Shown here piece by piece: positions 311-10,638 of a stretch of 12,791 nt of DNA. Under the pieces are notes generated by a model. It made no database searches. It was not told the DNA's origin and saw nothing but the letters and a program-made list of their open reading frames with translations. The position numbers and the translations under genes are program-made. Positions within the stretch are counted from its first letter, which is position 1, and every line of letters starts with the position of its first letter. The DNA comes from Deltaproteobacteria bacterium (lineage in GTDB: Bacteria > Desulfobacterota > Desulfuromonadia > Desulfuromonadales > JAAYDE01), in NCBI GenBank assembly GCA_017417085.1, contig JAFPZV010000037.1, positions 1 to 12,791 of the forward strand. The letters run 5' to 3'.

Positions 311-327
311 TGGCAACAAAGTTGCCA
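311..327. promoter_or_regulatory. Perfect inverted repeat, candidate activator-binding site (UAS)
   Basis: TGGCAAC-aaa-GTTGCCA is a perfect 7-base dyad with a 3-base spacer. Its centre (319) lies about 80 bp upstream of the centre of the sigma54-type promoter and about 100 bp upstream of the predicted transcription start. That is the usual distance for the upstream activating sequence of a sigma54 enhancer-binding protein. No T-run follows, which argues against a terminator. The protein that binds it is unknown. Confidence 0.45.
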
Positions 328-386: not shown

Positions 387-410
387 AGGATTGGCACGTT
401 CTATGCTTTT
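387..410 (+). promoter_or_regulatory. Sigma54 (RpoN) -24/-12 promoter of the translocon operon
   Basis: TGGCACG at 392-398, four bases (TTCT), then ATGCT at 403-407 match the sigma54 consensus TGGCACG-N4-TTGCW at all but one position. The invariant GG (393-394) and GC (405-406) have the required spacing. The five upstream bases, AGGAT, also fit the degenerate flank. Transcription would begin near 417-419, about 50 bases before the ATG at 468. Sigma54 promoters need an AAA+ activator, and the dyad at 311-327 is a plausible binding site. The match is seen in the sequence; its use is inferred. Confidence 0.65.
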
Positions 411-467: not shown

Positions 468-782
468 ATGAAATTCTCGGAAGAACAGTTCAAGAAACAG
501 GATGAAGCCATCGCTGCCCTGGAAGATCAGCTGTCGAGGCTGAAAAGTCAGGAACAGACTCTGCGCAAGACGCTGGAAGGCGGCCTGCAGACCATGGAAA
601 AACATGGCATCCCGCAGATGAAAGGCGATCTGAACAATATCCCGCCGGAACTTGCCGAGCAGATCAAGGAAGCCCAGGCGGAAGCCAAACGCCAGGGCGC
701 GGCAGCCGCTGCCCAAAGCCCGGCCACTGCGGCGCCGACCACTTCCGGCGGCAGCAAGCGGAAAGGCGTAGTGCGGGCCTAA
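468..782 (+). CDS. Small basic coiled-coil protein, possible SseA/CesAB-type filament chaperone
   Basis: The protein has 104 residues. The ATG at 468 follows AAAGGA (455-460) with 7-base spacing. Residues 1-45 form a heptad-rich, charged helix likely to be coiled coil, and residues 59-78 form a second helix. An Ala/Thr/Ser-rich linker (78-92) leads to a basic tail ending SGGSKRKGVVRA. There is no signal peptide or membrane segment. It is the first gene of the operon, directly before two EspA/SseB-type filament genes. In SPI-2 that position holds sseA (about 108 residues, basic, helical, basic C-terminus), the chaperone that keeps SseB and SseD soluble; CesAB does the same for EspA. Size, charge, helix content and position agree, but sequence similarity is too low to prove by eye. 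It could instead be another small T3SS component. Confidence 0.42.
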   Translation: MKFSEEQFKKQDEAIAALEDQLSRLKSQEQTLRKTLEGGLQTMEKHGIPQMKGDLNNIPPELAEQIKEAQAEAKRQGAAAAAQSPATAAPTTSGGSKRKGVVRA

Positions 783-860
783 AACCGCTCCGGGACGCGC
801 CTCAAATATCCGGCAGCACTCTGCGAATATGCAGAAATTTCTGAAAGGAGATCGAAACTT

Positions 861-1382
861 ATGTCAATCAGCGGCGTCAACAACACCAACGGCCCTTCCT
901 CCATTTCCGGCAGCGATCTTGGGGTATATGGCACCACCAGCCTGCAGTTCATGTTCGCCAAACTCCAGCTGGAACTGGCCGAGGCCGCCAAGGCAAGCGC
1001 CATGGACAAGATGAACGATATCCAGAAGTCCCAGGAAGAGCGCAAACTGGTTTCGAAGTATCTCAACGAATGCCGTCAGGCGCAGGCCGATGCCCAAACG
1101 AGCGGCAAAGCCACCGAGATGAGCGCGGAATGCGTGAAATACATGGAAGCACATGGGCTGGCCTACGACAAGACCGGTAACGACTACAAGCACAACAAGG
1201 ACGAATGGAAGGTGGCCATCACGGCACTGGAGGGGCGGCTGGACGAGCTCGGTTCCGATACCCAGCAGCAGATGGTTTACGTGCAGGACTACATGGGCCA
1301 GTACAACTCCTACCTGCAGGGTTCCAATACCCAGATCGCCAATGGCAACCAGACCCTGCAGGCCTTGGCGCGCGGACAGTAA
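861..1382 (+). CDS. T3SS filament/needle-tip protein, EspA/SseB family, copy 1
   Basis: The protein has 173 residues. The ATG at 861 follows AAGGAG (844-849). EspA/SseB proteins polymerise into a sheath that extends the T3SS needle to the translocation pore. The layout fits: a Ser/Gly-rich N-terminus without a Sec signal (1-26), a long amphipathic helix beginning LQFMFAKLQLELAEAAK (28-75), a variable middle (72-90), then SAECVKYMEAHGL (88-100), which matches SseB PEDVIKYMRDNGI. The C-terminal helical region (114-172) includes WKVAITALEGRLDEL and is likely to form the coiled coil that polymerises. EspA and SseB have about 190 residues. Cysteines are at 71 and 91. The gene lies between the putative chaperone gene and a close paralogue. 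The family call rests on remembered sequences and gene order. Confidence 0.75.
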   Translation: MSISGVNNTNGPSSISGSDLGVYGTTSLQFMFAKLQLELAEAAKASAMDKMNDIQKSQEERKLVSKYLNECRQAQADAQTSGKATEMSAECVKYMEAHGLAYDKTGNDYKHNKDEWKVAITALEGRLDELGSDTQQQMVYVQDYMGQYNSYLQGSNTQIANGNQTLQALARGQ

Positions 1383-1390
1383 GGGAAAAC

Positions 1391-1428
1391 TCCCCCCGGC
1401 CCTTCGGGTCACCTCTCAAGAAGGGGGA
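1391..1428 (+). other. Intercistronic hairpin after filament copy 1
   Basis: TCCCCC (1391-1396) pairs with GGGGGA (1423-1428), and CCC/GGG inside the loop (1400-1408) can form a small inner stem. No T-run follows, so it is not a rho-independent terminator. Hairpins at such positions can protect the 3' end of an upstream message and raise the yield of abundant subunits. That role is inferred. Confidence 0.35.
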
Positions 1429-1463
1429 AGCTCAACTTGAAAACGAAAAGGAGAAAACCATTT

Positions 1464-2006
1464 ATGTCAATCAGCGGAGTGAATAACACCAGTGGCCCTT
1501 CCTCCATTTCCGGTAGCGATCTTGGGGTATATGGCACCACCAGCCTGCAGTTCATGTTCGCCAAACTCCAGCTGGAGCTGGCCGAGGCCGCCAAGACGAG
1601 CGCCATGGAAAAGATGAATGATATCCAGAACTCCCAGGAGGAGCGCAAGAGAGTTTCCCAGCTGCTCAACGAATGCCGCCAGAAGCAGTCCGACGCCAGG
1701 GGCGGCACAGGCGACTGTCCCTGGGACAAGAAGGCCTCCATGATGAGCGAGGATTGCCAGAAATACATGGACCAGCATGGGCTGGCCTACGACAAGACCG
1801 GCAACGACCGCGCCAACAACGAGGAGGAGTGGAAAGTGGCCATCACGGCGCTGGAGGGGCGGCTGGATGAACTCGGCTCCGACACCCAGCAGCAGATGGT
1901 CTACGTGCAGGACTACATGGGCCAGTACAACTCCTACCTGCAGGGTGCCAACACCCAGATCAGCAACGGCAACCAGACCCTGCAGTCCCTGGCACGCGGG
2001 CAGTAA
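1464..2006 (+). CDS. T3SS filament/needle-tip protein, EspA/SseB family, copy 2
   Basis: The protein has 180 residues. The ATG at 1464 is preferred because AAGGAG (1448-1453) precedes it and because its first codons match copy 1; an upstream in-frame TTG at 1437 would include the ribosome site. It is a tandem paralogue of the gene at 861. Residues 1-63 and about 122-180 are nearly identical to copy 1. The centre (about 66-120) differs by many substitutions and a 7-residue insertion, GGTGDCPW replacing a shorter stretch. It has three cysteines (71, 85, 98) against two in copy 1. The conserved ends should form the polymerisation helices and the variable centre the exposed surface, so the two subunits may co-polymerise or replace one another. 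That use is inference. Confidence 0.75.
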   Translation: MSISGVNNTSGPSSISGSDLGVYGTTSLQFMFAKLQLELAEAAKTSAMEKMNDIQNSQEERKRVSQLLNECRQKQSDARGGTGDCPWDKKASMMSEDCQKYMDQHGLAYDKTGNDRANNEEEWKVAITALEGRLDELGSDTQQQMVYVQDYMGQYNSYLQGANTQISNGNQTLQSLARGQ

Positions 2007-2010
2007 GCTG

Positions 2011-2039
2011 GAACCGGTCCCCTCTCAGGGCAGGGGTTC
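2011..2039 (+). other. Intercistronic hairpin after filament copy 2
   Basis: GAACC (2011-2015) pairs with GGTTC (2035-2039), and CCCT (2020-2023) pairs with AGGG (2027-2030) inside it. An alternative fold pairs CCCCT (2019-2023) with AGGGG (2032-2036). No T-run follows. It sits between the second filament gene and the chaperone gene, like the hairpin after copy 1, and could set different mRNA levels for filament and translocator genes. Confidence 0.35.
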
Positions 2040-2081
2040 ACACGACATCAACAAATTTAATTTTTGCAAGGAGAAACCGCT

Positions 2082-2636
2082 ATGGCCGAAGCATTGAAAC
2101 AGGATCCGGAACTGCGAAAACTGATGGTGGAGATGATGAAGGAATCGGGAGAGCCCCAGGCCGAGGCGGCGGTAGACGCCATGTGGCAGGCGATCGCCGG
2201 CGGCGCGCGCATCGCCGACGTGCTGAGCATCTCCAAAGAGACCCTGGAGGCTGGTTACGCCTACGGTTACAACCTGTACTCCGCGGGCAACTTTCAGGAT
2301 GCGGCCGTCATGTTCCGGGGGCTGTGCATCTACGATCCTGACGATCCCCGCTACTGGATGGGCCTGGGCGGCTGTTTGCAGGCCTGCGGCAACTACGACA
2401 AAGCCATTGACGTATACGGCATGGCGGGTGTGGCCGGGGCTATGCAGGATCCGGCGCCCTTCTACCATGGCGGCATCTGTTGCCTGAAAAAGGGCGATGC
2501 CGAGGGCGCGCGGGTCTCGCTGGAAACCGCGCTCACGCTGGGCAAGGAGAGCAATCCCGCCCACAAGGCCTGCCATGACAAGATCCGCGGGCTGCTGGCC
2601 TCCCTCAAGGAGGCGCAGAAGGAGGCCAGGGCATGA
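2082..2636 (+). CDS. Class II T3SS translocator chaperone, SycD/LcrH/SscA type (TPR)
   Basis: The protein has 184 residues. The ATG at 2082 follows AAGGAG (2068-2073); a TTG at 2064 would lie upstream of the ribosome site and is rejected. Three TPR-like units are visible at about 56-89, 90-123 and 124-157, with the pattern LEAGYAYGYNLYSAGNFQDA, YWMGLGGCLQACGNYDKA and FYHGGICCLKKGDAEGA. This is the hallmark of the SycD/LcrH/IpgC/SicA/CesD family, cytoplasmic chaperones that bind the two translocators through the concave TPR face and prevent premature insertion. An N-terminal helical stretch (1-50) precedes the TPRs, and a Lys/Glu-rich helix ends the protein. Family members usually have about 150-170 residues. 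Its stop overlaps the start of sctE (ATGA), indicating translational coupling with its likely client. Confidence 0.85.
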   Translation: MAEALKQDPELRKLMVEMMKESGEPQAEAAVDAMWQAIAGGARIADVLSISKETLEAGYAYGYNLYSAGNFQDAAVMFRGLCIYDPDDPRYWMGLGGCLQACGNYDKAIDVYGMAGVAGAMQDPAPFYHGGICCLKKGDAEGARVSLETALTLGKESNPAHKACHDKIRGLLASLKEAQKEARA

Positions 2637-3700
2637 GTACCACTGTTCAGAACAACGGCGCTGTCAACCCCGCGTTTCCACTTGCGCTGGAAGCGCTCGA
2701 TGCGGCGAAGAGCCAGGGAACTCCGTCCGATTTTACCATTCCCGGCGCAAAGGAAACCATCAGGAACCTGCTGGCGCAACTCAACTATCAACTGCCGGCT
2801 CTGGAGTCTCCCGATCCGGAAATCAGCCAGGAGGCAATGAAAGAGCTCAGGACCTTGACGCTCGGAGGCCTGTCGCTGGAAACGCTGCTGGACGCGGTCG
2901 GCAACGAGGAGCGCAAGACCGAGTCCAAGTCGGGTGTTGCCACCTTGAAGGCCAACGCGCAGGAACGCAAGGCGGCCAACGACGAAAAGATCAAAAAGTT
3001 GCAGGAAGAACTGGAAAAGGCCAAGCAATCCAGTTTTCTGGACGGCCTGCTCAAGGTGTTCAAGTACATCGCCATGGCGGTGGCGGTGATCGGCGCGGTA
3101 GCCACAATCGCCGCTTCCGGCGGCGCGGCGGCGCCGATCATCCTCGGTGCGGCCGCCCTGCTGATGACGGCGGACAGCATTACCCAGGAGGCGACCGACG
3201 GGAAGGTGGGCTTCGGGCCGGGCTTCATCGCCGGCAAGATCGCCGAGGCCTGCGGCGCCAGTGAGGAGACTGCACAGTGGATCCAGTTCGGCGTGGATCT
3301 CGCGGTCTCCATCGCACTCATGGCCGGCGGCGCCGTCGCGGCGTCCAAGGCGGTCAATACCGCGGCCAAGGCTGCCGACGCGGCGAGCAAATTTCAGAAG
3401 ATAGCGGGTACGGTCTCCAAGGCCTCCGCCATTGCGGGAGCCGCGACCGGCGTTGCCCAGGGCGCGACCGGCATTGCCAACGCCTTCAACGAGAAGGACA
3501 TCGCCACGCTTCAGGCCGACCAGAAGCGGATGAACGCCATTCTGGAGAGGCTTGCCCAGGCCAATGATCTGACCGTGGAGCATCTCAAACGGACCCTTGA
3601 GCGCGTCGAGGATCTCTTGCAGCAGGTCGCGGAAATCGTCGATGGCAGCGTGGAAGCCAACATTTCCCTGATGACCGGTCAACCACCGGCCATGGCCTGA
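2633..3700 (+). CDS. sctE: T3SS major translocator SctE (SseC/EspD/YopB family)
   Basis: The protein has 355 residues. The ATG at 2633 overlaps the upstream TGA (ATGA), with GGAGG at 2621-2625. SctE proteins are secreted through the needle and, with SctB, form the pore in the host membrane. The expected layout is present: a polar N-terminal secretion and chaperone-binding region (1-95), a Lys/Glu-rich coiled coil (102-134), a first hydrophobic block (about 145-180, IAMAVAVIGAVATIAAS then APIILGAAALLMTA), a GFGPGF linker, a second hydrophobic segment (about 220-240, DLAVSIALMAGGAVAASK), and a C-terminal amphipathic coiled-coil region (285-340). There is no Sec signal. YopB-type proteins usually have about 380-480 residues, so this one is slightly short. 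Position after a SycD-type chaperone and before SctB is typical. Confidence 0.85.
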   Translation: MSTTVQNNGAVNPAFPLALEALDAAKSQGTPSDFTIPGAKETIRNLLAQLNYQLPALESPDPEISQEAMKELRTLTLGGLSLETLLDAVGNEERKTESKSGVATLKANAQERKAANDEKIKKLQEELEKAKQSSFLDGLLKVFKYIAMAVAVIGAVATIAASGGAAAPIILGAAALLMTADSITQEATDGKVGFGPGFIAGKIAEACGASEETAQWIQFGVDLAVSIALMAGGAVAASKAVNTAAKAADAASKFQKIAGTVSKASAIAGAATGVAQGATGIANAFNEKDIATLQADQKRMNAILERLAQANDLTVEHLKRTLERVEDLLQQVAEIVDGSVEANISLMTGQPPAMA

Positions 3701-3728
3701 TCCCCCAAACATACGGAAGGAAAACATT

Positions 3729-4487
3729 ATGAGCACCCGTATTGAGCAAAGCACCGGGTATGATCCGGCACTTTACAACCAGCTGATTCAGGAAGCTGCT
3801 CAGAAAAACGTGAGCAGCGCCACGGTGGATGCGGCGCTGTTGCAGGCGATAGACGCGGGCAAGAGCTTCACGGAGGCGGTAAAGCAGGTTCAGAATGATC
3901 TGCCCATACTGGCACCGGCGAACACCAGCAACATCAACGACGGCCTGAAGGCGTGGAGCGGACTGGCCAGCGCCAGCCCCTGTGCGCTGATGGCAGCCCT
4001 CCTGATCAAGGATTCCGCCGAATCGCACCGCCAGAACCGTGACCGCATCATGGCGGAGGGCGAAAACATCGCCCAAAAGATGGAGGAAGAGGCCGACAAG
4101 CTGGAGGAAGGCGCCATGCAGAAGTTCTGGTGTGCTGTTGCCGCCAATGCGGCGACCATTGCCACCTCGGCAGGTAGTATGGCCATCGCCGGCGGCGCAG
4201 GCAAGACCGGAAATATGTCGAACGAGACGCGGGCTGCCTTTGCCCAGGCCAACAGTGCCATTGGAAGCGGCATCGGCGGCATTATTAACGCCGGAGGAGA
4301 CTACGCCCAGGCCATGCGCCAGTCCGAGGCCAAAAAGATCGAGGCCGATCAGGAGCGTCTCCGCACCGCGCAGGAACTGCTCAAACAGCACAACGAACAG
4401 CTGCGCGACGTTATCGCCAAAGCGCTGGACTTCATGAACAGCATGCAGGCCAACATGAACCAGACCAGGGCAAGAATTCTGGGCTGA
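3729..4487 (+). CDS. sctB: T3SS minor translocator SctB (SseD/EspB/YopD-like)
   Basis: The protein has 252 residues. The ATG at 3729 follows GGAAGG (3716-3721). SctB partners SctE in the host-membrane pore. The protein has a polar N-terminus (1-75), a weakly hydrophobic stretch (81-95), a charged helix rich in Glu/Lys (105-130), one main hydrophobic segment (about 134-157, FWCAVAANAATIATSAGSMAIAG), a Gly/Ala-rich part (175-190, AIGSGIGGIINAGG), and a C-terminal amphipathic coiled coil (195-245). This single-hydrophobic-segment pattern with Gly-rich stretch and helical tail resembles SseD and EspB. No Sec signal is seen. It is the last gene of the operon, 28 bases after sctE. SctB proteins are poorly conserved, so the call depends partly on position. 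Confidence 0.75.
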   Translation: MSTRIEQSTGYDPALYNQLIQEAAQKNVSSATVDAALLQAIDAGKSFTEAVKQVQNDLPILAPANTSNINDGLKAWSGLASASPCALMAALLIKDSAESHRQNRDRIMAEGENIAQKMEEEADKLEEGAMQKFWCAVAANAATIATSAGSMAIAGGAGKTGNMSNETRAAFAQANSAIGSGIGGIINAGGDYAQAMRQSEAKKIEADQERLRTAQELLKQHNEQLRDVIAKALDFMNSMQANMNQTRARILG

Positions 4488-4617: not shown

Positions 4618-7152
4618 TCACCCCGCTTCGAAAAACTGCCGCATGGCGGCGAGTACCGTCTGCGTATCGCCCTCGGCGCGGCGCGTTTTGGGCAGGGAAT
4701 CCAGAAACAGCGCGCCGTAGTACTTGTTGACCACGCGGCTGTCGAGGATCAGCACCACGCCGCGATCGGTGCGGCTGCGGATCAGCCGCCCAAAGCCCTG
4801 CTTGAAACGGATCACCGCCTGCGGCACGGTATATTCGCGGAAAGGATCGCCGCCCTCGCGCTGCAGGGCATCGACGCGCGCCTGCTGAATCGGTTCGGTG
4901 GGGACCCTAAATGGCAGCTTGACGATGATGATCTGTTCCAGCGCCCGCCCCGGCACATCCACGCCCTCCCAGAAGGAATCGGTGGCAAACAGCACGCTGG
5001 TGGGATCGCTTACAAAGGTTTGCAGCAGCCGGTGCCGGCTGTCGTCTCCCTGGCACAGGCAGCGATAGCCGTGAGCCCTTAAGGATGGCGCGGCTTCGGC
5101 AAAGACCCGCCTGAGCAACGTATAGGCGGTGAAAAGCACGAAGGTGCGGCCATCCGCGGCCAGTATCGCCCGTTCGCACAGATCGCGGGCGGCAGCCGGA
5201 AAATCGCCGCTGTTGGGGTCGGGCAAATCGTTGGGCAGGGCAACCAGCGCCTGGTTGGGAAAATCGAAGGGCGAAGCCAGCTGCAATTCGCTTAAGCGGG
5301 CATTTTCCTCCGCAAGCCCCACCCGCGCCCGGAAATAGCCGAACGACTTGCGCACCGCCAGCGTCGCGCTGGTCAGCACCACCGTTTTGTGATGCCCGAA
5401 CAGATGTTCGCGCAGCAGAGGCGCAACGGTCAGCGGCGCGACGCAGAGCCGGCAGATGACGCCCGATGAACGCCCGATGCGCCCCTGCGTCACCTCCATC
5501 CAGACGCAGTGTTCTTCGTCGCAGTCCACAAACAGCCGCAGGGAAGCCGCCAGCCGTTCCAACCTTCCCGCCGCGGCCGACACATCCACCAGCACCGCCG
5601 CCAGTTTCTCCCCTTCCAGATCCCCGCAACGCTCAATCAGGCCGCGCAAGCCCTTTGCAAGCGCGCAGGTATCGCTTTCCAGTTCCAGCACCTTTTCGCG
5701 GATCGCCTCCCAGGCTCCGGAAACGGCAAAGGCACCCGTCACGCGAAGGCGCAGATCTCCCTGGGGCTGCTGCATAAATTCGCGCACCCGGAAAGCCACG
5801 TCTTCCAGCGTTGAAATCGCCTTTTCCCGCAGCCTGTCGCCTCCCTTCGCCAGTTTTTGAACCGTTTCGAAAAAATCAACGTAGAGCGCATTCTCCGACG
5901 ACGGAATCAGCATGGAAAGGCTGTTCAGCAGCCGCGGCAGAAAACCCGCGTCAACCTTGCGGGGATGGCGCAAACGGTTGAGCAGCCGCACAAACCCAAA
6001 ACGGGTCACCTCACTGGAGAAGAAACGGGTCGCCCCGTCTTCCAGATGATGCGCCTCGTCCAGAATCAGCCGGGTACTGGCCGGAAGCAGCGCGGTAGCC
6101 GAATAGTTGCCGCTCTGCGCGCGGATGGCCAGATCGGCCATCAGCAGCGCATGGTTGACCACCAGCAGATCCGCCTGCGCGGCCAGCCGCCGTGCCCGCT
6201 GCAGAAAGCAGTCGCCGAAAAAGGGACAGAGCACATGGAGACACTGATCCAGTTCACAGCAAACTTCCTCCCAAACCGTTTCCGACGGCGCAAACGGCAT
6301 CGAAGCCCGTGAGCCATCCCGTGTTTCCAGGCTCCATTCGGCAATCCGCTCCAATTCCGTTTTCTGTGCATTCTCCAGCAGGTCCGGCTCCTGACGCGCA
6401 TCCTCCAGACGCCGCCGGCACAGATAGTTGGAGCGCCCCTTGAGAAGCGCGGCACGGAACCCGACGCCGCTGGCATGACGCAGCAGGGGAATATCCTTGG
6501 AGATCAGCTGTTCCTGCAAATTGATGGTATTGGTCGAGACAATGACCCGTTCCCGGTTGGAGGTGCTCCAGAGCACGGCCGGCAGCAGATAGGCCAGGCT
6601 CTTGCCGGTGCCGGTGCCGGCTTCCACCAGGGCCAGCCGATCCCGATTGAAAGCCTCCGCAACCGTCAACGCCATGCGCAGCTGCTCCGGACGTTCCTCA
6701 TAGCCGGAAAGCGCGGCCGCAAAGCGGCCATCCGGAGCGAAACACCGGCCGATTGTTTCCAAATCCAGAGGAATAATCTTGTTTTGCGGCAGTGGTTCCA
6801 CAACTCTGTACACATTGTTCACAGAGTTGTCCACAATATAGAAGGCCACGCTCAAGGTCGCCAACTGCGCGGCAATACTGATATCCGGCGAAGAAGGCCG
6901 CAGATCTCCCGAGGGATGGTTGTGAATAACGACGCCCCCCGCCTCGCAACGGGCGGCAACCGCCGGGACAGCATTATGCGAACCGCGTGCCGCGACACTT
7001 ACCTGTGCAACCTGAGCCCTTTCGTTCAACGTGCCGACAAAAAACACCTCGTTGCCGTTTGCCGCGGCAATTTCCGAGCGCAGCTCATGGACAACATCCG
7101 GCGTAAAGGTCCGCTGCACCTGTCCTGCACTCTGTGGGGAAGCCGGGGGCAC
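4618..7152 (-). CDS. dinG: DinG-family Fe-S DNA helicase with N-terminal JAB/RadC-like domain
   Basis: The protein has 844 residues from a GTG at 7152, which sits 6 bases after AAAAGGA; a TTG at 7158 touches that ribosome site and is less likely. DinG/YoaA are XPD-like superfamily 2 helicases that unwind DNA 5' to 3' at replication and repair intermediates. Seen: Walker A GTGTGKS (179-185), four cysteines for a 4Fe-4S cluster (245, 304, 309, 315), DEAH box (365-368), LTSATL (593-598), FATDSFWEGVDVPG (722-735), and motif VI QGFGRLIRSRTDRG (785-798). Residues 1-120 carry a JAB/MPN+ signature: Glu35, HNHPSG with His77 and His79, and Asp90 exactly 11 residues on, as in RadC. E. coli DinG lacks this domain, which accounts for much of the extra length (DinG has about 716 residues). 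The start overlaps the end region of the CNNM/CBS gene. Confidence 0.9.
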   Translation of the reverse strand: MPPASPQSAGQVQRTFTPDVVHELRSEIAAANGNEVFFVGTLNERAQVAQVSVAARGSHNAVPAVAARCEAGGVVIHNHPSGDLRPSSPDISIAAQLATLSVAFYIVDNSVNNVYRVVEPLPQNKIIPLDLETIGRCFAPDGRFAAALSGYEERPEQLRMALTVAEAFNRDRLALVEAGTGTGKSLAYLLPAVLWSTSNRERVIVSTNTINLQEQLISKDIPLLRHASGVGFRAALLKGRSNYLCRRRLEDARQEPDLLENAQKTELERIAEWSLETRDGSRASMPFAPSETVWEEVCCELDQCLHVLCPFFGDCFLQRARRLAAQADLLVVNHALLMADLAIRAQSGNYSATALLPASTRLILDEAHHLEDGATRFFSSEVTRFGFVRLLNRLRHPRKVDAGFLPRLLNSLSMLIPSSENALYVDFFETVQKLAKGGDRLREKAISTLEDVAFRVREFMQQPQGDLRLRVTGAFAVSGAWEAIREKVLELESDTCALAKGLRGLIERCGDLEGEKLAAVLVDVSAAAGRLERLAASLRLFVDCDEEHCVWMEVTQGRIGRSSGVICRLCVAPLTVAPLLREHLFGHHKTVVLTSATLAVRKSFGYFRARVGLAEENARLSELQLASPFDFPNQALVALPNDLPDPNSGDFPAAARDLCERAILAADGRTFVLFTAYTLLRRVFAEAAPSLRAHGYRCLCQGDDSRHRLLQTFVSDPTSVLFATDSFWEGVDVPGRALEQIIIVKLPFRVPTEPIQQARVDALQREGGDPFREYTVPQAVIRFKQGFGRLIRSRTDRGVVLILDSRVVNKYYGALFLDSLPKTRRAEGDTQTVLAAMRQFFEAG

Positions 7153-7154
7153 GC

Positions 7155-10638
<3,484 letters not shown>

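What the first reader, a model, noticed from the sequence alone, without database searches (positions are those of the whole stretch)
468..4487. Compact SPI-2/EspA-type translocon operon separated from the rest of a T3SS
The order small basic chaperone-like protein, filament, filament, TPR chaperone, SctE, SctB reproduces sseA-sseB-sscA-sseC-sseD with the filament gene duplicated. It is flanked by non-T3SS genes on both sides: an AT-hook protein, and a helicase followed by ligA. No apparatus gene is in the window. If the host belongs outside Proteobacteria, an EspA-type filament would be unusual, because the chlamydial system encodes LcrH/CopB/CopD translocon genes without an evident EspA homologue. 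The operon could be a separately regulated module that extends a needle encoded elsewhere.
Basis: partly seen in the sequence, partly recalled or inferred. Interest (0 to 1): 0.8.

Follow-up and report, generated by a model that had tools for sequence, protein, structure and literature searches.

The report
Relocated injection-needle filament and pore operon
A rumen bacterium from a group in which we found no other injection machine carries, among ordinary chromosome genes, a borrowed set of genes for the outer filament and host-membrane pore of one; it matters because it suggests this outer part can move on its own and raises the question of which needle, if any, it completes.

Summary
Window 468-4487 encodes a small helical protein, two tandem EspA-type filament subunits, a SycD chaperone, SctE and SctB; no apparatus gene is in the window. 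The taxonomic guess does not hold: the flanks place the host with Desulfuromonadales (LigA 95% identical to rumen MAG RGIG7977; named homologues Desulfuromonas, Geoalkalibacter). The operon is of Desulfovibrionaceae type, where the same genes lie inside a complete T3SS locus, for example on the Nitratidesulfovibrio vulgaris plasmid. The SctE tree groups the window with D. piger and Mailhella. EspA-like genes occur in 1 of 277 genomes of the sister MAG's class. So this looks like a laterally acquired translocon module that stands apart from an injectisome. It does not look decayed: espA1 and sctB show purifying selection against the sister species, and a sigma-54-type promoter conserved across the family sits 60 bp upstream. 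SctV, SctC, SctN, SctJ and SctU were not found in the sister MAG, but that MAG is fragmentary and the window's own genome is not held. Most likely it caps a needle encoded elsewhere, perhaps on a plasmid. Use without an injectisome is not excluded.

The parts
311..327 (.). candidate activator-binding inverted repeat TGGCAAC-AAA-GTTGCCA, starting 80 bp before the promoter site
   Evidence: perfect 7-bp arms; at the same offset in sister locus L001 in imperfect form; of the other 23 operons 1 (L011, at -99) has TGGCA-N-TGCCA, 21 do not and L025 was not examined; L004 has a related repeat at -69. Weak.
391..407 (+). sigma-54-type (-24/-12) promoter TTGGCACGTTCTATGCT
   Evidence: 12 of 13 consensus positions (consensus recalled), the only site that good in the window. 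By pattern alone one match is expected by chance. Sites of 11 or more in 17 of 25 operons, of 10 or more in 23 of 25, against at most 3 and 8 in 300 random draws; the operons are related, so they are not independent.
468..782 (+). small helical protein, first gene of the operon, family with a conserved C-terminal GRRGxVRL-type tail; possible filament-subunit chaperone
   Evidence: 23-member alignment A5; no family or PDB assignment; two predicted helices and a tail, pLDDT 67
861..1382 (+). EspA-type filament subunit 1 (173 aa)
   Evidence: dN/dS 0.065 against the sister MAG, from 8 silent and 2 other changes
1464..2006 (+). EspA-type filament subunit 2 (180 aa), tandem paralogue, 84% identical
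2079..2636 (+). SycD/LcrH translocator chaperone; its stop overlaps the sctE start by 4 bases
   Evidence: TIGR02552 4.2e-38; PcrH and SycD structures by sequence, E 3.5e-22 and 1.1e-21
2633..3700 (+). SctE (major translocator, SseC class), hydrophobic 19-residue windows starting at residues 142, 159 and 219
   Evidence: PF04888 6.3e-16; hydropathy; tree
3729..4487 (+). SctB (minor translocator)
   Evidence: NF038055 6.9e-9, PF04888 2.2e-5, both under cut-off; intact and 82.5% identical in the sister MAG, dN/dS 0.21
4618..7158 (-). flanking chromosomal gene, RadC-like domain plus DinG/YoaA-type helicase (not part of the system)
   Evidence: 96% identical and next to sctB in the sister MAG

Best explanation
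This is the full translocon and filament gene set of a Desulfovibrionaceae-type T3SS. A rumen Desulfuromonadales-like genus acquired it laterally and it became fixed among chromosomal housekeeping genes (supported by sequence comparison). A sigma-54 activator switches the operon on (inferred from the promoter). SycD holds SctE and SctB, and the small first protein may hold the filament subunits (inferred). The EspA-type subunits polymerise on a needle tip into a filament that ends in the SctE/SctB pore (inferred from EspA/SseB biology, recalled). Needle and basal body come from an injectisome encoded elsewhere in the genome, possibly on a plasmid as in Nitratidesulfovibrio vulgaris (inferred, not found).
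For: Family assignments. Same gene order inside T3SS loci of Desulfovibrionaceae and on N. vulgaris plasmid pDVUL01, where neighbours are annotated SctU, SctT, SctS, SctV, SctW, SctC, SctD, needle, SctJ and a sigma-54-dependent regulator. SctE tree: window clade 100/100, grouped with D. piger/Mailhella at 97/97. LigA 95% to RGIG7977, 57-64% to four family or order mates, 43-49% to most operon carriers; named homologues mainly Desulfuromonadales. The sctB-helicase junction recurs in the sister MAG. EspA-like in 1 of 136 genomes of that MAG's order and 1 of 277 of its class. dN/dS 0.065 espA1, 0.35 small protein, 0.21 sctB. Conserved promoter.
Against: No apparatus marker over the cut-off in the sister MAG or its three family mates: SctV, SctC, SctN, SctJ, SctU. 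The MAG matched only about 6.1 of the first 8.6 kb of the window, so the absence is weak, but it counts against. The window's own genome is not held. The middle of the operon, sctE included, is not seen in the sister MAG. The filament proteins match no EspA model directly, and the VIA-align rows are not specific.
Confidence: 0.6

Rival explanations
1. The lineage has no injectisome; the module is kept for another job, such as surface filaments or membrane-active proteins exported by a different route.
For: Five apparatus markers are not found over cut-off in the sister MAG and three family mates, and G001 and G048 show no SctV/FlhA homologue at all, yet the genes seen in two genomes are intact and constrained. 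EspA-like domains occur in two genomes without SctV or SctC hits, Emergencia and Blautia.
Against: espA1, SctE and SctB have no hydrophobic segment at the N-terminus, so no sign of Sec export; a SycD chaperone with two translocators makes sense with type III export (recalled). The MAG is fragmentary.
Confidence: 0.18
2. A remnant of a former complete T3SS locus whose apparatus genes were lost; the operon is on its way out.
For: Local rearrangement: the helicase-amidohydrolase neighbourhood of G048 and G049 is broken up in the window. The small protein and SctB are 81-83% identical between the two genomes while LigA and helicase are 95-96%.
Against: All ORFs are open, dN/dS is well below 1, the promoter is kept, and five SctE proteins at 76-91% identity (P0121-P0125; hosts not known) form one clade with the window.
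Confidence: 0.12
3. Assembly chimera: Desulfovibrionaceae DNA joined by error to Desulfuromonadales DNA.
For: Operon and flanks point to different groups. The upstream flank differs from that in the sister MAG.
Against: MAG RGIG7977 (water buffalo rumen) has the same sctB-helicase junction and joins the first genes to purM/purN-type genes (named by eye); operon DNA differs between the two by 8-15%, so they are not the same assembly.
Confidence: 0.04

Closest known systems
Nitratidesulfovibrio vulgaris plasmid T3SS (pDVUL01; pDV1 in strain Hildenborough), hypothetical-hypothetical-SycD-SctE-SctB operon
   Same: Same gene order; EspA-like protein 48.5% identical; sigma-54 regulator beside the locus; sigma-54 promoters reported for the two T3SS operons of Hildenborough (PMC4641369, passages).
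   Different: There the operon lies inside a T3SS locus on a plasmid, with one filament gene, annotated only as hypothetical; here it is alone, next to housekeeping genes, with two filament genes.
Desulfovibrio piger and Mailhella T3SS translocon operons (L002, L004-L006)
   Same: Closest outside relatives in the SctE tree; small protein, two to four espA, sycD, sctE, sctB.
   Different: Divergent from sctW-sctV-sctS-sctU and followed by a chaperone, sctC and sctD; different bacterial order.
EPEC EspA filament and Salmonella SPI-2 SseB/SscA/SseC/SseD (family facts recalled)
   Same: Order filament, chaperone, SctE, SctB; best-ranked PDB match of the model is 7khw, TM 0.65; a relative passes Pfam EspA.
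   Different: No direct sequence match of the window proteins to EspA; first gene not shown to be SseA or CesA.
Translocon operons of termite-gut Zoogloeaceae and Accumulibacter MAGs (L012, L015, L016)
   Same: Also without apparatus genes in the fetched flanks.
   Different: G009 and G011 (L012, L015) hold a SctV over the cut-off elsewhere; G012 (L016) has only a sub-cut-off, flagellar-level hit. Different place in the SctE tree.

Membership tests
SycD/LcrH translocator chaperone | match to curated model above cut-off | tested here: met
   TIGR02552 130.1 bits against 104.8
SctE translocator | SseC domain above cut-off, with hydrophobic membrane stretches | tested here: met
   PF04888 59.3 bits against 30.2; hydrophobic windows at 142, 159 and 219
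SctB translocator | match to curated model above cut-off | tested here: inconclusive
   NF038055 35.6 bits against 37; PF04888 24.7 against 30.2; position agrees
EspA-type filament protein | Pfam EspA PF03433 | tested here: inconclusive
   not for the window proteins themselves; passed by relative P0021, 68% identical; 3 of 31 at E 1 and 9 of 37 at E 0.05
EspA-type filament protein | EspA filament fold | tested here: inconclusive
EspA-type filament protein | forms a filament on the needle | not testable with these tools
   needs microscopy
SseA/CesA chaperone (first gene) | match to a chaperone model or structure | tested here: not met
   none for the 104-aa protein, the 23 members (NCBIfam) or their profile (PDB); so not filed as SseA
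Complete non-flagellar T3SS in the host genus | SctV, SctC, SctN, SctJ, SctU | tested here: inconclusive
   none over cut-off in sister MAG G001; controls G003, G005, G019, G020 ring over the cut-off for all five, G014 for three of five; G001 is incomplete and the window's genome is not held

The most novel reading that the evidence does not exclude
A translocon module that works without any injectisome of its own in the genome: a laterally spread EspA filament and SctE/SctB pore set used by a rumen Desulfuromonadales as a stand-alone surface device or with an unrelated export route.
Probability: 0.15. Interest if true: 0.85.

Novelty: new variant of a known kind. Interest (0 to 1): 0.52.

Why it matters
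Abby and Rocha (PMC3459982, passages seen) argue that host specificity of injectisomes likely reflects linkage of the core genes to the genes of the extracellular parts. Here the extracellular part stands apart from any core locus in view and sits in another bacterial order, which makes separate inheritance of filament and pore testable. It also suggests that Desulfovibrionaceae T3SS proteins annotated as hypothetical or 'USH1C-binding protein 1' are EspA-type filament subunits, and it puts a possible host-contact system in a rumen Desulfuromonadales group.

Tried and rejected
Chlamydial or other non-proteobacterial host: rejected by LigA. Phage carriage: an IMG/VR scan with the EspA-like profile gave 58 pattern matches, none confirmed. 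SseA/CesA identity of the first gene: no support. Direct PDB sequence match of EspA-like proteins, single or as profile: nothing meaningful. VIA-align as proof of the EspA fold: not specific. An exact empty site could not be drawn, because the neighbourhood is rearranged between family mates. Window SctE against G001 and three family mates: nothing, because the contigs of G001 end around it. SctV hits of 692-695 bits in three order mates just pass the cut-off of 692.25 but lie far below the 822-895 bits of the 42 real SctV hits and look like flagellar FlhA. PF04888 in the order: 3 of 136 weak hits, none over cut-off; one is the G001 sctB, the others lie in an 818-aa frame and in a frame with stops. 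Literature: nothing seen on a T3SS in rumen Desulfuromonadales (one search gave no paper; of the 920 only 12 were listed) or on EspA-type proteins in Desulfovibrio (one search gave one paper, whose passages name Desulfovibrio only for SctD and chaperone proteins). Most subscription papers are not in that library. Selections: A1 used 30 of the 120 listed (365 found) EspA-like hits plus the second window copy; A2 used 28 of 88 SctE hits; the tree used 14 of those 88 plus locus copies with over 200 matched residues (46 rows).
Full report
What is there. The window carries, on the + strand, six genes at 468-4487. The fourth is a SycD/LcrH chaperone (TIGR02552 4.2e-38; PcrH and SycD structures at 3.5e-22 and 1.1e-21). 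The fifth is SctE (PF04888 6.3e-16). The sixth is SctB (NF038055 6.9e-9 and PF04888 2.2e-5, both under the curated cut-offs). SctE starts 4 bases before the end of sycD. The second and third encode proteins of 173 and 180 aa, 84% identical to each other.

The first gene. The 104-aa protein has relatives in 24 of the 67 fetched loci. With the window that is 25, in 20 of which it lies directly before espA; in L036, L037, L038 and L040 it lies before sycD, with espA after sctB, and in L025 between espA and sycD. It has a predicted helical hairpin and a C-terminal tail of the GRRGxVRL kind, but no known family. 'Chaperone' is a guess from position.

Host. No genome is held for the window. The nearest genome is MAG RGIG7977 from water buffalo rumen (L001, G001). 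Window LigA is 95% identical to it, 57-64% to G048, G050, G051 and G058 of its family or order, 51-54% to five further order mates (a sixth gave only a fragment), 43-49% to most operon carriers such as D. piger and Bilophila, and 32-33% to the two Firmicutes; 6 of 35 genomes gave no LigA hit. Named LigA homologues among the 120 listed are Desulfuromonas, Geoalkalibacter, Geothermobacter, Desulfuromusa, Syntrophotaleaceae and 'Desulfuromonadales' or 'Deltaproteobacteria bacterium'; the best hit is unnamed. That the host is a Desulfuromonadales-like genus is inferred from this. The order of G001 holds 136 and its class 277 searchable genomes; EspA-like genes occur only in G001 in both, and no SseC-family protein passes the cut-off in the order.

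Origin. The genome scan with the EspA-like profile found 67 loci, mostly Desulfovibrionaceae, termite-gut MAGs and Succinivibrionaceae. Of 35 loci that hold sctE, 30 also hold apparatus genes in the fetched flanks; the five that do not are L011, L012, L015, L016 and L034, some on short contigs (the apparatus queries came from L023 and L024 of this set). In Desulfovibrionaceae the usual layout is sctU, sctS, sctV, sctW on one strand and small protein, espA (one to four), sycD, sctE, sctB, chaperone, sctC, sctD, needle on the other. The annotated N. vulgaris plasmid pDVUL01 shows the same, its EspA-like gene called hypothetical. The SctE tree (46 rows, unrooted, 12 of 42 inner branches open, several long branches) gives a 100/100 clade of the window with P0121-P0125, which joins the D. 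piger/Mailhella clade (98/93) at 97/97 and then a Desulfovibrio clade at 94/98. SctE at about 50% identity to these and EspA at about 60% to D. piger and Mailhella, against 43-47% for the slow LigA, fits lateral transfer.

Chimera and decay. In G001 the DNA search finds window 280-1594 on contig C124, 3657-4488 followed by the helicase (4631-7095) on C54, and 7022-8600 on C38. The sctB-helicase junction is therefore present in two genomes. Most of espA2, sycD and most of sctE are missing from that MAG, so these genes are not confirmed there. dN/dS of window against G001: espA1 0.065 (10 changes only), small protein 0.35, sctB 0.21; controls ligA 0.124 and helicase 0.116. The small protein and SctB diverge faster (81 and 82.5% identity) than LigA and helicase (95-96%), while espA1 is 99% identical with dS 0.076 against 0.16-0.48 for the other four genes compared, which hints at recombination. 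In family mates G048 and G049 the helicase 3' end abuts the amidohydrolase and DUF4126-like genes that in the window lie beyond ligA, so the block has been rearranged.

Regulation. At 391-407 is TTGGCACGTTCTATGCT, 12 of 13 positions of the sigma-54 consensus (recalled) and the best in the window. By pattern alone one match is expected by chance. But 17 of 25 operons have a site of at least 11 in the 310 bases before the first gene, against a mean of 0.6 and a maximum of 3 in 300 random draws from the same loci; L019 and L025 have no good site. The operons are related, so this is conservation rather than independent finds. An inverted repeat at 311-327 may be the activator site; it is clear only in the window and, imperfectly, in L001. 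In D. vulgaris Hildenborough the two T3SS operons have predicted sigma-54 promoters and an activator gene in the locus (PMC4641369, abstract and passages).

Is there a needle? In G001 there is no hit for SctV, SctC, SctJ or SctU, and for SctN only homologues far below the cut-off, 84-238 bits against 604.75. G048-G050 have nothing over the cut-offs either. Four controls (G003, G005, G019, G020) ring over the cut-off in all five searches; G014 does in three. But G001 is 1.7 Mb, fragmented, and matched only about 6.1 kb of the first 8.6 kb of the window. The five markers are normally one locus, and in N. vulgaris that locus is on a plasmid, a kind of DNA that binning often loses (general knowledge). 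So the absence is suggestive only.

Reading. The best-supported story is a laterally acquired, chromosomally fixed, sigma-54-driven translocon and filament module that completes a needle encoded elsewhere (0.6). Stand-alone use (0.18) and a dying remnant (0.12) remain. It is a new variant of a known kind: known parts and order, unusual host group and unusual separation.

Noticed in passing
L033:9740-11861 and L047:9659-11846: EspA-like domain (family profile E 2e-39 and 5e-26) in Emergencia timonensis and Blautia schinkii, in proteins that start with a signal- or lipobox-like segment and end in a membrane segment (by eye), each followed by two similar small membrane-protein genes; these genomes have no SctV or SctC hit. 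An EspA-like domain outside T3SS in Firmicutes.
   Followed up: partly
L048, L049, L051, L052, L055, L050, L059, L062, L063: Succinivibrio dextrinosolvens genomes carry several isolated EspA-like genes with no sctE or apparatus gene found in the fetched flanks; the one in L048 touches the needle model PF09392 at 2.8e-4.
   Followed up: no
L003:9644-11159: D. piger ATCC 29098 has a second espA array without sctE in the fetched flank, preceded by a frame that begins like the small first gene and ends like espA, as if fused by deletion.
   Followed up: no
L012, L015, L016: Termite-gut Zoogloeaceae and Accumulibacter MAGs also carry translocon operons without apparatus genes in the flanks; L012 and L015 have an extra SycD-like gene upstream. 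The genome of L016 (G012) shows only a sub-cut-off SctV hit.
   Followed up: partly
window 4618-7158: Fusion of a RadC-like JAB domain with a DinG/YoaA-type helicase; near full-length matches in family mates G048-G050.
   Followed up: no
window 861-1382 against L001:4976-5497: espA1 is far less diverged at silent sites (dS 0.076) than its neighbours (0.28 small protein, 0.48 sctB) and ligA (0.24), a hint of gene conversion or recombination.
   Followed up: partly
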